Source of the DNA: a virus
Strand: one strand, 5' to 3'
Length of the DNA: 20,801 nt
Virus record (IMG/VR): IMGVR_UViG_3300023093_000009
Coordinates: 1-20,801 of that record
In this document: positions 6,078 to 9,876 of the stretch, piece after piece
Layout of the letters: each line of letters starts with the position of its first letter
Position numbering within the stretch: the first letter of the stretch is position 1
The notes under the pieces: model-generated
The model's database searches: none
The model's input: the letters and a program-made list of their open reading frames with translations, nothing else
Told to the model about the DNA's origin: nothing
Position numbers and translations under genes: made by a program

Positions 6078-7457
6078 ATGACTGACACCACCCCGCAGAT
6101 CGGATCCACCATCCGGATCCCGATCGCCGAGCTCACCGTCGACGCGAACATCAGGAAAGTGACCAAGGTCCCGACCTCGTTCGCATCCTCCGTCAAACAG
6201 CACGGCGTGATGGTCCCCGTCGAGGCCTACCAGGTCGACGGCACCTGGCACCTCGGCGACGGCCAGCTCCGCTACCTCGCCTCACTCGACGCCGGCCTCC
6301 TCGACATCCCCGCGATAGTCACAGACCCCGCGCTCGCCGAGTCCACCCGACTTCTCCGCCAGCTGATCCTCAACGAGCACCGCACCGAGATCTCCGACGC
6401 CGATCGCGCCGGCACCTACCAGACCCTCTTCGACCTCGGCGTCTCCGCCGACCAGATCGCCCGGAAGGCCAACAAGCCGAAGAGGACCGTCGAGCGGGCA
6501 CTCGCCGTCACGGGATCTGCAAGTGGCGCGGCATCGCTCGAGCAGGGAGTGACGCTAGATCAGGCCGCCGAGATCCTCGAGTTCGAGGACGACCCGGAGA
6601 TCACCGCGGCGCTCACCGAAGTCGCGGCCACCCAACCGGAGAAGCTGCAGCACCACATCGCCACCGCGCGACAGGCGCGTGAAGAGGCAGCTCGCCGAGC
6701 CGAGACTGTCGCCGAGGTCGAGCTGCGCGGCATCACCGTCGTCGAACCCGGCGACCACATGAAGGGCGCCGTCCGCCTCGACCATGTCTACACCGACGCG
6801 AAGCTCAAGAACCTCGCGGCCGAGGACGACCTCAAAGGTCACGTAATCGCACTCCTGAACCGCATCTACGGCTGGATCAACGAAGAGTGGCGGCCGAAGT
6901 TCGTCCCCGAGTACTTCGTCAATCCGGTACCCGACGGATTCTTCGTCAAGACCACCGCGGCGGAGAAGGCCCCACTCACCGAAGACGAGCTCGCCGCCCG
7001 CCGCGAGGTACGCGAGAACAACAAAGCCTGGCCGCTCGCCACCACCGTCCGCCAGACGTGGATCACGGACACGCTCCTGCAAGGCAAACTCCCCAGCGAC
7101 GTCACCGTGTTCCTAGCCACCAGCCTGTGCGGCGAGCACCCGAAGACCGGCCAGAGCAACGGACGCGAGCTCGCGTCCAAGTGGCTCAACCTCGGCGACC
7201 CGACTCAGACTTCCTACACCCGCGCCGAGCCCATCGCGCTCGAGCTCGCAGACCAGCCACAGCGCGCCGAACTCATCGCGCTCGCCGTTGCCGTCGGGCG
7301 CGCCGAGGCCGCCATCCACGGCAAGGAAGGGTGGCGGGTTCACTACAGCGAGCTCAGGAGGCTCGCGACCTACCTGCGCCAACTCGAGGCCTGGGGCTAC
7401 GGCCTCGCACCCATCGAAGAGCAGCTCATCACCAAAGCCGAGGAGGCGGCCAAGTGA
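6078..7457 (+). CDS. ParB-like nuclease/CTPase-fold protein, 459 aa
   Basis: ATG 6078 follows GAAAGG (6063-6068) with a suitable spacing. Residues about 10-100 form a ParB/sulfiredoxin-type domain (RIPIAELTVDANIRK, SVKQHGVMVPVEAY) with the hallmark loop GDGQLRY at 60-66. Residues about 104-145 (ILNEHRTEISDADRAGTYQT, then GVSADQIARKANKPKRTVER) look like the adjoining HTH. Residues 150-215 are helical and charged; the remaining about 240 residues are unlike chromosomal ParB and contain aromatic-rich segments (YGWINEEWRPKF). No ParA and no obvious centromere repeats accompany it, so plasmid-style partition is unlikely. Phage ParB-domain proteins of this type may act as nucleases or transcription factors. 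Domain call firm, role open. Confidence 0.82.
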   Translation: MTDTTPQIGSTIRIPIAELTVDANIRKVTKVPTSFASSVKQHGVMVPVEAYQVDGTWHLGDGQLRYLASLDAGLLDIPAIVTDPALAESTRLLRQLILNEHRTEISDADRAGTYQTLFDLGVSADQIARKANKPKRTVERALAVTGSASGAASLEQGVTLDQAAEILEFEDDPEITAALTEVAATQPEKLQHHIATARQAREEAARRAETVAEVELRGITVVEPGDHMKGAVRLDHVYTDAKLKNLAAEDDLKGHVIALLNRIYGWINEEWRPKFVPEYFVNPVPDGFFVKTTAAEKAPLTEDELAARREVRENNKAWPLATTVRQTWITDTLLQGKLPSDVTVFLATSLCGEHPKTGQSNGRELASKWLNLGDPTQTSYTRAEPIALELADQPQRAELIALAVAVGRAEAAIHGKEGWRVHYSELRRLATYLRQLEAWGYGLAPIEEQLITKAEEAAK

Positions 7458-7915
7458 GCCCGCGCACCGTCACCCTCATGGACAAGCTCCTCCTGACCGA
7501 CATCGTCGCGAAGCCCGAGCTGCTCCGCACCCGTCCGGTCCAGGCGCGATCGCTGCGCCAGCTGCAGACGATCGTCACCGCAGCCCGCCACGTCCTTCGC
7601 GAAGTCGGCCGCGACGAGCTGACCACCGCCATGGTCGCCGATCGCGCCGGCGTCTCGATCGGAACCTTCTACCGGTACTACGACGACCGCGGCCCGCTCC
7701 TCGACGAGATCCTCACCATCACCACCGTCGACCAGGTGCGCGCCCTCCCGCGAGGAAGCGTGCTGCTCTGCGCCGTCAACGAGGTGTTCTGGCTCGCGCC
7801 GGGTGAGGGCAAGCGCACCTGGTACGCCGCCGGCTACACGGCCGACTCCACCTGGACCGACGAGACCGTGCTCGACTGGGTGCCGCTGCGTCTTCTCCAC
7901 CGAGGTGATCGGTGA
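7454..7915 (+). CDS. TetR-type HTH protein with short C-terminal part
   Basis: GTG 7454 overlaps the ParB-like stop (GTGA); 153 residues. Residues about 33-82 are a TetR N-terminal DNA-binding domain: LQTIVTAARHVLREVGRDEL, TTAMVADRAGVSIGTFYRYY, then DDRGPLLDEIL. Classical TetR regulators are about 190-220 residues with a helical ligand-binding domain; here only about 70 residues follow, rich in Trp and Tyr (TWYAAGYTADSTWTDE), and they look like a different small domain. This is an atypical regulator or DNA-binding protein coupled to the ParB-domain gene. It ends 16 bases from the end of a gene on the other strand. Confidence 0.78.
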   Translation: MSPRTVTLMDKLLLTDIVAKPELLRTRPVQARSLRQLQTIVTAARHVLREVGRDELTTAMVADRAGVSIGTFYRYYDDRGPLLDEILTITTVDQVRALPRGSVLLCAVNEVFWLAPGEGKRTWYAAGYTADSTWTDETVLDWVPLRLLHRGDR

Positions 7916-7939
7916 TGGTCTGCTGCCGGTCTCACTCGG
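7900..7939. terminator. Hairpin spanning the convergent gene ends
   Basis: CCGAG(G)TGA at 7900-7908 pairs with TCACTCGG at 7932-7939, an 8-bp stem with one bulged G; an inner CGG/CCG can extend it. It covers the stops of both convergent genes (TetR-like at 7913-7915, opposite-strand gene at 7932-7934). There is no clear T-run on either side, so this is at best a weak bidirectional terminator or mRNA 3' end. Confidence 0.3.
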
Positions 7940-8453
7940 CCTCGTCCTCCGCCTCCTGTGCCTTCATCGCGGCCAGCGCAGTTGCGTACGTGCTCTCTAC
8001 CGCTAGCGGAGAGATCTCGCCGCGATACCAGGCGGACGCCGCCATCCCAGCTGCGACTAACTGCTGGGTTGCCGGCCCGACGCCCATTCCTGTGCTGGGG
8101 AGACTCACGCGAAAGACGCGGGGGATTGCCATTTCGTCGCCGACGACCCACATCTCGAGCTCCCCGATGTGCCTGCTGAAATCAACTAGACGCCTTGTGC
8201 TCGCGGCCTTATCAATCGCTTTCTCCGTCAAGTACGCGCCCAGGGATGCCTCAATTTCGACGATCAGTCGCCGAATCTCCGACCGTCGAAGTTCAGCGGC
8301 ACGTGTCTTCCGCTCTTCCCTCTCCCGCAGCCATGGAGCCAGCACCGTGCCCGCAATCGATCCCACCAACGCGATCACCGACACGGCGATCGCGACCCAG
8401 GAGGTGTCAGCCGGTGCATCCTTCACCGCGCTCGCGGCTGCGATCAGAATCAT
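7932..8453 (-). CDS. Single-span membrane protein with helical cytoplasmic domain (moron, gene 2)
   Basis: Reads leftward from ATG at 8451-8453; 173 residues. The N-terminus is short, then comes one hydrophobic span at about 19-41 (WVAIAVSVIALVGSIAGTVL), followed at once by a strongly charged helix (WLREREERKTRAAELRRSEI) that places the C-terminus in the cytoplasm and resembles a coiled coil. The remainder (VDFSRHIGELEMWVVGDEMA, QQLVAAGMAASAWYRGEI) is helical with an acidic tail. No known domain is recognised. The start codon has no Shine-Dalgarno but directly follows a 16-bp sequence shared with the gene at 8506-9120. It lies antisense between two rightward operons, as expected of a prophage-expressed accessory gene. 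Superinfection exclusion or defence is possible, unproven. Confidence 0.8.
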   Translation of the reverse strand: MILIAAASAVKDAPADTSWVAIAVSVIALVGSIAGTVLAPWLREREERKTRAAELRRSEIRRLIVEIEASLGAYLTEKAIDKAASTRRLVDFSRHIGELEMWVVGDEMAIPRVFRVSLPSTGMGVGPATQQLVAAGMAASAWYRGEISPLAVESTYATALAAMKAQEAEDEAE

Positions 8454-8466
8454 GCCCGCAGCCTAC
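8451..8466 (-). promoter_or_regulatory. Putative leaderless promoter, copy 2
   Basis: On the minus strand the sequence is GTAGGCTGCGGGCATG. TAGGCT fits the actinobacterial -10 pattern TANNNT, and exactly six bases separate it from the ATG, so transcription would begin at the A of the start codon. No Shine-Dalgarno and no clear -35 box is visible. The same 16 bp precede the gene at 8506-9120. The rest of the 52-base gap between the two leftward genes holds nothing else I can name. Confidence 0.55.
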
Positions 8467-8505
8467 CGAGGAGCGCATGGGTGCTCCCACGGTCCCCGTC
8501 GTCCC

Positions 8506-9120
8506 TCATCCGACCGTCGGCGCAGGCGGATTCGCCTTCTGCCATGTCTCAGCCAGAGCACGCAGGGGCAAATCCGACGCCGGAAGTCGGAGCTCTTGGT
8601 GCCTCCGTTCGCCGGTGATGGTAGTGAACGAGACCTTCGCACGATCGCGACCAGGGCTCTCAGTGCCGTATCGCCAAACAAAACTCGTCACCTCGTAATC
8701 CGCGGTCACGCTCACCGGATTCCGCCGCTCAACGTGAACGAGCTTCTGTTCACCCGGATCGACAATCTCCCACTTCAGAGGTTTGGACTCGTCGGTCATG
8801 AACACGGTCCAAAGCGGATCGGCTTCGAAGGTCAGCACGACATCCGTCGCCCGGGTCTCACCCACGTTCGTCAACATGAGCTGCACGTTGAAGATGGTGC
8901 TCGCGGGTGGGTCTGCCGGGTATTCCAAGGTCCAATACGCGTCCCGGTAAGCGCGCACATCGCTCCGCGCTTGTCGCGACTCCAGCCACGACAGACCAGC
9001 AAACACAAGTGCGACGACCGCGATCACAGTCGTGATGACGTAGCCGGCTATCGCCCACCCAGTGCCGTCCGTCTCACCCGCCGGCTTAGCGGCAAGGAGT
9101 AACCACATGCTCTCAACCAT
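8506..9120 (-). CDS. Single-span membrane protein with beta-rich cytoplasmic domain (moron, gene 1)
   Basis: Reads leftward from ATG at 9118-9120 (a second Met is five codons in); 204 residues. One hydrophobic span at about 22-44 (WAIAGYVITTVIAVVALVFA) is followed by LSWLESRQARSDVR, so the C-terminus should be cytoplasmic. The rest alternates like a beta-sandwich: FNVQLMLTNVGETRATDVVL, then KPLKWEIVDPGEQKLVHVE, then VSFTTITGERRHQ, ending in a short helix. The L.N.GE..A.DV pattern is seen in membrane-anchored Ig-like domains of unknown role. The gene has its own leaderless-type start element and opens the two-gene antisense cassette. Function unknown; a lysogen-expressed protective protein is the leading guess. 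Confidence 0.8.
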   Translation of the reverse strand: MVESMWLLLAAKPAGETDGTGWAIAGYVITTVIAVVALVFAGLSWLESRQARSDVRAYRDAYWTLEYPADPPASTIFNVQLMLTNVGETRATDVVLTFEADPLWTVFMTDESKPLKWEIVDPGEQKLVHVERRNPVSVTADYEVTSFVWRYGTESPGRDRAKVSFTTITGERRHQELRLPASDLPLRALAETWQKANPPAPTVG

Positions 9121-9133
9121 GCCCGCAGCCTAC
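9118..9133 (-). promoter_or_regulatory. Putative leaderless promoter, copy 1
   Basis: Minus-strand GTAGGCTGCGGGCATG, identical over 16 bp to the element at 8451-8466. The next seven bases upstream match at five positions. TAGGCT fits TANNNT and the ATG follows after six bases. The element sits in the 30-base space between this leftward start and the rightward ATG at 9151, so the two transcription units are divergent and very close. Confidence 0.58.
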
Positions 9134-9150
9134 AGAGCAGGAAACGAACA

Positions 9151-9876
9151 ATGATCGCAACTCTCGTCCTGGCAGTCATCGCGCTCGCCGCGCTCACGCT
9201 CACCGTCATGGCGTGGCCTGGCATCAGCCGTCGTCGCCGGTGGGACCGACTGTGGAAGGAGTGGGCCCGCTTCGACTTACCTGCGGCGATGGCGCGCGGC
9301 CTCGCCGGGATCGGAACCGCCGCGGCCGCGACTGCACCCGCCTTCGCCCGCTTCGGCCAACTCATCGGCGAGATGAACATCGAAGTGGCGCGACTGACGG
9401 AGGGCACCAGTTTTCTCGCCGGTGAGCTCGGCGTCTGGCAACTACCGAAGCCCAATCCGACCAAGCGACCCGTGACCACGGCGCGCGAGCTTTTCGACCG
9501 GATCGAAGCGATCCGAAGCCGAGCGGCGCGCAGACAAACGCGAGGGCAGAACTTTCCCGAGCGACGGATCGATCTCGGCGAGAACATCCTCGGGATCCTG
9601 CGCGGCTCGGAGCCGACATCGCTCACCGACATCTTCGACCGCCCCACGCTGATGGGCATCCCGATCAACACCGCCTGGTTCGTTCCGCGCCACTCCATGC
9701 TCCAGACGGCGTCCGGAATCACCATCCACCCGCTCACCATGATCACCCTCACCTCGCAGAACCACCTCGAGGAACTCGAGCGCACCATCGCCGAGCTGCA
9801 CCGTCAGGCCAACACCGCCTTCGCCGAAGCCCACTACCACCTGGCCATCGACATGGAAGAGATCTACCAGCAGTGA
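9151..9876 (+). CDS. Membrane-anchored protein of unknown function, 241 aa
   Basis: ATG 9151 follows AGGAAA (9139-9144), a good ribosome site. The 241 residues begin with a hydrophobic anchor at about 2-22 (ATLVLAVIALAALTLTVMAW), then a basic cluster SRRRRW that keeps the rest in the cytoplasm. A helical Ala-rich region (about 45-85) is followed by a mixed domain (GVWQLPKPNPTKRPVTTARE, RIDLGENILGIL) and a C-terminal helix (HLEELERTIAELHRQANTAF). I do not recognise the family. It resumes the rightward direction after the antisense pair and is coupled to the next gene by a GTGA overlap. Confidence 0.78.
   Translation: MIATLVLAVIALAALTLTVMAWPGISRRRRWDRLWKEWARFDLPAAMARGLAGIGTAAAATAPAFARFGQLIGEMNIEVARLTEGTSFLAGELGVWQLPKPNPTKRPVTTARELFDRIEAIRSRAARRQTRGQNFPERRIDLGENILGILRGSEPTSLTDIFDRPTLMGIPINTAWFVPRHSMLQTASGITIHPLTMITLTSQNHLEELERTIAELHRQANTAFAEAHYHLAIDMEEIYQQ

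What the first reader, a model, noticed from the sequence alone, without database searches (positions are those of the whole stretch)
7932..9120. Antisense two-gene membrane cassette inserted between lytic operons
Between two rightward blocks lie two leftward genes and nothing else. Both products have one hydrophobic span near the N-terminus followed by basic residues, so both should present a cytoplasmic domain: a beta-rich one in gene 1 and a charged helical one in gene 2. Neither matches a family I know. Opposite orientation and private promoter-like elements are typical of morons expressed in the lysogen, where superinfection-exclusion and anti-phage functions are often found. The two may act as a pair, one as sensor and one as effector, but that is a guess.
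Basis: partly seen in the sequence, partly recalled or inferred. Interest (0 to 1): 0.7.

Follow-up and report, generated by a model that had tools for sequence, protein, structure and literature searches.

The report
Foreign two-gene membrane-protein phage cassette
An actinobacterial virus carries, backwards among its own genes, two borrowed genes with matching built-in start signals; each makes a protein that should hang a different domain from the inner face of the cell membrane, as genes that guard the host against rival viruses often do, though that function is untested.

Summary
Two leftward genes (8506-9120, 204 aa; 7932-8453, 173 aa) fill the gap between rightward blocks, and each encodes one N-terminal membrane span followed by a basic stretch. 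The flanks are early/DNA-metabolism genes, not lysis genes, and the first gene to the right (9151) also has one membrane span. New evidence: (1) third-position GC is 0.71-0.73 against 0.81-0.89 in the neighbours, and a syntenic prophage lacks the cassette, so it is an acquired accessory. (2) Of 451 ATGs in the window only these two starts have TANNNT 5-8 nt upstream. Both carry the same TAGGCTGCGGGCATG, so each gene is probably transcribed alone as a leaderless mRNA. (3) Gene 1 belongs to a broad unnamed family (phrog_9607: membrane span plus beta domain), found in prophages at comM and beside type I restriction genes. Gene 2 has one distant mobile-region relative. (4) The relatives found never occur together, so the pair/sensor-effector idea is unsupported. 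Best reading: a lysogenically expressable moron cassette of two independent membrane-tethered proteins, with superinfection exclusion or defence the likeliest role (about 0.35-0.4). Interesting but of a known kind. The most novel untested point is a duplicated promoter-start-anchor module fitted to two different domains.

The parts
8506..9120 (-). gene 1, 204 aa: one N-terminal membrane span, basic linker, beta-rich cytosolic domain with TNVGETRATDV (phrog_9607-like family)
   Evidence: ORF; phrog_9607 E=1.1e-5; HMM built from relatives without gene 1 finds it at E=2.4e-7 among 10,887 ORFs; predicted strands (low confidence)
7932..8453 (-). gene 2, 173 aa: one N-terminal membrane span running into a long charged helix, then two helices; no named family
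   Evidence: ORF; one distant relative L151:9793-10530(-), phmmer E=9e-7; model pLDDT 57, helical
9118..9132 (-). TAGGCTGCGGGCATG: -10-like TAGGCT 6 nt before the ATG of gene 1 (leaderless-type start)
   Evidence: TANNNT about 12 bp upstream of the start marks leaderless genes in Actinobacteria (PMC3160421)
8451..8465 (-). TAGGCTGCGGGCATG: identical element at the ATG of gene 2
8448..8473 (-). 26-nt repeat copy 2 (23/26 identical to 9115-9140), spans promoter and start of gene 2
9115..9140 (-). 26-nt repeat copy 1, spans promoter and start of gene 1
9151..9876 (+). divergent neighbour, 241 aa, N-terminal membrane span, native composition (GC3 0.83); its start is 30 bp from that of gene 1; probably not part of the cassette
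   Evidence: no Pfam/PHROG/NCBIfam/PADLOC match
7448..7915 (+). left neighbour: TetR-type HTH followed by a phrog_2021-like tail; ends 16 bp before the cassette; not part of it
   Evidence: TetR_N E=2.1e-10, phrog_2021 E=0.001

Best explanation
The cassette is a horizontally acquired accessory ('moron') insertion in the early region of a probably temperate actinobacterial siphophage. SHOWN: foreign codon-position composition, reverse orientation, absence from the syntenic relative, an identical leaderless-type promoter/start element at each gene, and gene 1's membership of a family found in prophages and defence/mobile loci. INFERRED: because each gene should start transcription at its own ATG on the strand opposite the rightward early operon, both can be made when that operon is silent, i.e. 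in the lysogen, while lytic rightward transcription would run antisense through them. INFERRED: both products sit in the cytoplasmic membrane with the C-terminal domain inside. Gene 1 presents an Ig-like beta domain, likely a binding domain; gene 2 presents a helical one. The likeliest function is membrane-level exclusion of, or defence against, other phages by binding an incoming phage component or a host membrane partner. Gene 1 and gene 2 most likely act separately, with different targets. Probabilities: acquired accessory cassette 0.85; individually promoted leaderless genes 0.8; exclusion/defence role 0.35-0.4.
For: GC3 0.71 and 0.73 against 0.81-0.89 in the clearly called neighbours; GC 62.6% against 66.1%. 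The only two ATGs of 451 with TANNNT at 5-8 nt are these starts, and neither has a Shine-Dalgarno-like site, while many other window genes do or overlap the gene before. The same 15-mer marks gene starts elsewhere: 26 of 33 non-redundant high-GC IMG/VR hits head an ORF of at least 60 aa against 39% of control ATGs, 10 of 40 have a TTGA -35-like element, and 3 of 3 hits in 200 Microbacteriaceae genomes are starts of 226-325-aa ORFs. Syntenic prophage L058 (terL 60%, portal 59%, ParB, g4, HNH, terS) has no such cassette. Gene-1 family members lie near terL in a comM-located prophage (L152), at comM near an ERF gene (L153), beside type I R-M genes and recombinases (L150, L163) and beside a weakly Mrr-like nuclease (L160). 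Prophage-borne membrane proteins that block other phages are established in actinophages (Sbash, CarolAnn, Butters; PMC6426596, PMC6426606, PMC7542560).
Against: No function is known for phrog_9607, and association with defence loci is anecdotal (a few of 13 loci, no background rate measured). No integrase or repressor was recognised in the 20.8-kb fragment, so temperance is inferred from a relative. Neither promoter has a good -35 element, and the consensus scan found none. No expression data exist. Low GC3 could also reflect relaxed selection rather than acquisition.
Confidence: 0.5

Rival explanations
1. The two proteins form one two-component abortive-infection system (Rex-like): a sensor and a membrane effector.
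For: Adjacent, same strand, identical promoter elements. Two-gene prophage defence systems exist in Gordonia and mycobacterial phages.
Against: Known Rex-like pairs consist of a soluble protein plus a 4-pass membrane protein; here both have a single span. Relatives of the two occur separately. Each gene has its own promoter-like element.
Confidence: 0.12
2. The products are host-fitness or envelope-modifying lysogenic factors (not anti-phage), e.g. altering a membrane enzyme or transporter.
For: Family members also sit in chromosomes away from recognisable defence genes, e.g. L156 next to a 6-phosphogluconate-dehydrogenase-like gene.
Against: Several other loci are prophage or restriction-linked.
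Confidence: 0.2
3. They are early lytic takeover proteins, expressed on infection from strong host-type leaderless promoters.
For: Leaderless promoters are read by the host polymerase at once; in many IMG/VR phage contigs the same 15-mer heads small ORFs.
Against: The genes oppose the rightward early block and the syntenic relative lacks them.
Confidence: 0.2
4. The cassette contributes to lysis (holin/spanin-like).
For: Single-span proteins in a phage genome.
Against: No lysis genes nearby; no holin or spanin match in PHROGs or Pfam; a 100-150-aa cytosolic domain is atypical of holins; C-in topology with a large cytosolic domain does not fit an i-spanin.
Confidence: 0.03
5. The ORFs are spurious and the plus-strand 396-aa ORF (7912-9102) or nothing is coding.
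For: Coding scores of genes 1 and 2 are weak.
Against: Gene 1 has remote homologues across its span and beta domain, gene 2 has one. Their frames score best of the six, and both ATGs carry the only TANNNT starts.
Confidence: 0.03

Closest known systems
phrog_9607 (PHROGs v4, function unknown), a family scattered in Microbacteriaceae chromosomes and prophages
   Same: N-terminal membrane span, charged linker, beta-rich domain with N-x-G-x-T-x-A-x-D-V-like motif, C-terminal helix
   Different: Gene 1 is divergent (15-22% identity), lacks the R-(P/S)-Y motif before the first strand, and aligns only over the span and the first half of the domain in the PHROG match
Prophage-mediated two-gene defence of Sbash gp30/gp31, CarolAnn gp44/gp43, Butters gp30/gp31 (Rex-like)
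   Same: Adjacent accessory genes with a membrane protein, in an actinophage
   Different: Those pair a soluble protein with a 4-pass membrane protein; here both are single-pass and apparently independent
Membrane-level exclusion by small prophage proteins, e.g. DicB of E. coli (PMC6832061, found)
   Same: Hypothesised mode: acting at host inner-membrane proteins
   Different: No sequence relation tested or seen; DicB is a small protein whose host targets are known
EACC1 (Pfam PF19953, effector-associated constant component of conflict systems)
   Same: Weak hit over the membrane span of gene 1 only (E=0.004, below cut-off)
   Different: No EACC1-associated effector recognised nearby; only one of ten family members hits it

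Membership tests
phrog_9607-like family (gene 1) | Profile similarity covering membrane span and beta domain | tested here: met
   phrog_9607 E=1.1e-5, residues 27-125; HMM from 13 relatives without gene 1: E=2.4e-7 among 10,887 ORFs, all other matches being the family itself; all ten members of A2 hit phrog_9607
phrog_9607-like family (gene 1) | Conserved N-x-G and following Ala positions of the beta domain | tested here: met
   W22, N85, G87, A91, P122 invariant in alignment A2
Moron / accessory lysogenic cassette | Insertion absent from close relatives | tested here: met
   Absent from the interval between ParB and g4 in L058; only one relative this close was available
Moron / accessory lysogenic cassette | Composition differs from the flanking genes | tested here: met
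   GC3 0.71/0.73 against 0.81-0.89
Moron / accessory lysogenic cassette | Own promoter and terminator | tested here: inconclusive
   Leaderless-type -10 elements at both starts; no terminator found, no sigma-70 consensus pair
Moron / accessory lysogenic cassette | Expression in the lysogen | not testable with these tools
   No transcriptome available
Leaderless genes of Actinobacteria | TANNNT about 12 bp upstream of the start and no Shine-Dalgarno site | tested here: met
   2 of 451 ATGs, both of these genes, gap 6 nt, no SD-like site; definition from PMC3160421
Rex-like two-gene defence | One soluble and one 4-pass membrane protein | tested here: not met
   Both products have one span; definition from PMC7542560
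Rex-like two-gene defence | Homologues of the two genes co-occur | tested here: not met
   0 of 13 gene-1-family loci have a gene-2-like ORF; the single gene-2-like locus has no gene-1-like ORF; distant relatives only
EACC1 | Score above Pfam gathering cut-off over the domain | tested here: not met
   17.5 bits against 23.6, membrane span only
Known anti-phage defence (PADLOC-DB) | Profile match | tested here: not met
   No match for either gene

The most novel reading that the evidence does not exclude
The two genes share one duplicated 5' module, consisting of a leaderless promoter, start codon and membrane anchor, joined to two unrelated cytosolic domains: a mobile 'promoter-plus-anchor' unit that turns different binding domains into membrane-tethered exclusion proteins expressed without any phage activator. 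Support: a 26-nt repeat across promoter and start (23/26), a second in-frame repeat in the span region (8365-8378 / 9014-9027, offset changed by 18 nt = 6 codons), and weak protein similarity over the first 50 residues (score 45; 18 of 500 segment-preserving shuffles reach it).
Probability: 0.2. Interest if true: 0.65.

Novelty: new member of a known kind. Interest (0 to 1): 0.4.

Why it matters
Prophage-encoded membrane proteins decide which phages can enter a lysogen, but most are unrecognisable by sequence. This cassette gives two small, testable candidates and a search handle: reverse-strand genes with unique leaderless starts and odd third-position GC inside a phage operon. It also ties one of them to a widespread unnamed family with members in prophages and restriction islands. 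If the shared promoter-start-anchor module is real, it would show how phages build new membrane-tethered proteins by swapping domains behind one expression and anchoring unit.

Tried and rejected
Close relatives of either gene in isolated phages and plasmids (tblastn), in IMG/VR contigs and, for gene 1, in GTDB genome contigs: none. Class-wide search of 395 genomes with gene 1 or the two-row gene-2 alignment: no new relatives. The gene-2 hits L134/L135 are histidine-kinase-like proteins that match only over the span/coil region and were rejected. L129/L130 hits are chance matches to beta repeats or low-complexity protein. A profile search of PDB sequences gave only chance matches, mostly to membrane-helix or coiled-coil segments. 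Three relatives (two of the gene-1 family, one of gene 2) have no tblastn match in isolated phages, a third gene-1-family relative has none in IMG/VR, and the 10-row alignment was too diverse for a pattern scan. Rfam: no match. The idea that TAGGCTGCGGGCATG is a common host consensus was rejected: the 16-mer GTAGGCTGCGGGCATG has 3 copies in 200 Microbacteriaceae genomes.

Full report
What is there. The window is a 20.8-kb IMG/VR fragment of an actinobacterial siphophage. Its terL is most similar, among isolated phages, to Arthrobacter, Gordonia and Microbacterium phages (43-48%) and, best of all, to a locus in a Microbacteriaceae genome (L058, 60%). Essentially every convincing gene is rightward except two: 8506-9120 (204 aa) and 7932-8453 (173 aa), both leftward from ATG. 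The flanks are RusA-like, ParB-like and a TetR-HTH/phrog_2021 protein on the left. On the right are a one-span membrane protein (9151-9876), unknown genes, a MazG-like ORF (naming by inspection), HNH, terS, terL and portal. 'Lytic operons' in the sense of lysis is not right; these are early and packaging-side genes.

It is foreign. Third-position GC is 0.73 and 0.71 in the two genes and 0.81-0.89 in the clearly called neighbours; overall GC is 62.6% against 66.1%. In L058, which keeps ParB, the g4 homologue, HNH, terS, terL and portal in the same order, the interval between ParB and g4 contains rightward genes and no such pair. L058 continues into host chromosomal genes and contains divergent XRE-type genes (naming by inspection), so the relative is a prophage. 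That makes this lineage probably temperate; no integrase or repressor was recognised in the window itself.

It carries its own starts. Upstream of both ATGs stands the identical TAGGCTGCGGGC. TANNNT with a gap of 5-8 nt occurs before only 2 of 451 ATGs in the window, exactly these two. In Actinobacteria a TANNNT about 12 bp before the start marks leaderless genes (PMC3160421). Neither gene has a Shine-Dalgarno-like site. The exact 15-mer is rare but marks starts elsewhere: 26 of 33 non-redundant high-GC IMG/VR hits head an ORF of at least 60 aa, against 39% of control ATGs; ten of 40 also have TTGA at a 15-19-nt spacing from the -10; all three copies of the 16-mer found in 200 Microbacteriaceae genomes head long ORFs. 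Here the -35 region is poor. The identity extends over 26 nt (23/26). A second repeat in the membrane-span coding region, shifted by six codons, and a borderline protein similarity over the first 50 residues (18 of 500 segment-preserving shuffles score as high) hint that promoter, start and anchor were duplicated together. That is a suggestion, not a result.

What the proteins are. Each has one span with acidic/neutral residues before it and a run of Arg/Lys after it, hence N-out/C-in by the positive-inside rule (sequence, inference). Gene 1 then has about ten predicted strands and a C-terminal helix; gene 2 is helical (both models are low confidence). Gene 1 is a divergent member of the phrog_9607 family: E=1.1e-5 directly, and E=2.4e-7 among 10,887 ORFs with a profile built from 13 relatives without it. 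Relatives share W-span-charged linker-(R-P-Y)-strand-NxGxTxAxDV. Weak matches of gene 1 to TRAP-beta, and of a neighbour of one relative to CARDB, are compatible with an Ig-like beta sandwich. The family occurs in 14 of 300 Microbacteriaceae genomes. Two members lie at comM beside phage genes (L152 near terL, L153 near an ERF gene; comM named by inspection), two beside type I restriction-modification genes and recombinases (L150, L163) and one beside a weakly Mrr-like protein (L160). Gene 2 has a single convincing distant relative, in a region with ParA-like, resolvase and replication-type genes (L151).

Pair or not. Profiles of both were run against all ORFs held. None of the 13 gene-1-family loci has a gene-2-like ORF, and the gene-2-like locus has no gene-1-like ORF. 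With separate promoter-like elements, this argues for two independent tenants rather than a sensor-effector pair. The known actinophage two-gene defences (Sbash, CarolAnn, Butters) pair a soluble protein with a four-span protein (PMC7542560) and so do not match in architecture.

How it most likely works. In the lysogen the rightward operon is off, and host RNA polymerase starts at the two leaderless promoters. The proteins insert in the inner membrane and hold a beta-type and a helical domain in the cytoplasm, where they would bind an incoming phage protein or a host membrane partner. Shown: composition, absence from the relative, the start elements, and family membership of gene 1. Inferred: topology, lysogenic expression, exclusion. 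I put the accessory-cassette reading at about 0.85, individual leaderless transcription at 0.8 and an exclusion/defence role at 0.35-0.4; host-fitness and early-takeover roles remain open.

Verdict. A real, acquired, reverse-strand membrane-protein cassette. It is a new member of a known kind (phage morons) with one good new observation (twin leaderless start modules) and one new family link.

Noticed in passing
7448-7915 (+): A TetR-type DNA-binding HTH (TetR_N E=2.1e-10) is followed by a short tail matching phrog_2021 instead of a TetR ligand domain; an unusual fusion right at the cassette's left edge.
   Followed up: no
9151-9876 (+): A third single-span membrane protein, divergent from gene 1 with starts 30 bp apart and its RBS inside gene 1's promoter region; no family match.
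   Followed up: partly
L152:9473-10324 and L153:9425-10702: phrog_9607-family genes lie directly at a comM-like (Mg-chelatase-like) gene in two Microbacteriaceae genomes, with phage genes beyond, suggesting comM as an integration site with the family member at the prophage edge.
   Followed up: partly
L151:10578-11276 (+), L152:8714-9268 (-), L158:9001-9468 (+), L160:9057-9698 (+): Neighbours of the gene-1 or gene-2 relatives are themselves small membrane proteins with a different cytosolic domain and no strong Pfam match; such clusters may be general.
   Followed up: no
L072, L087, L088, L092, L095, L104, L105, L115, L116, L124, L126: A set of metagenomic phage contigs repeats GCGTTGACC-(about 16 nt)-TAGGCTGCGGGCATG before different genes: a strong leaderless phage promoter with both hexamers.
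   Followed up: partly
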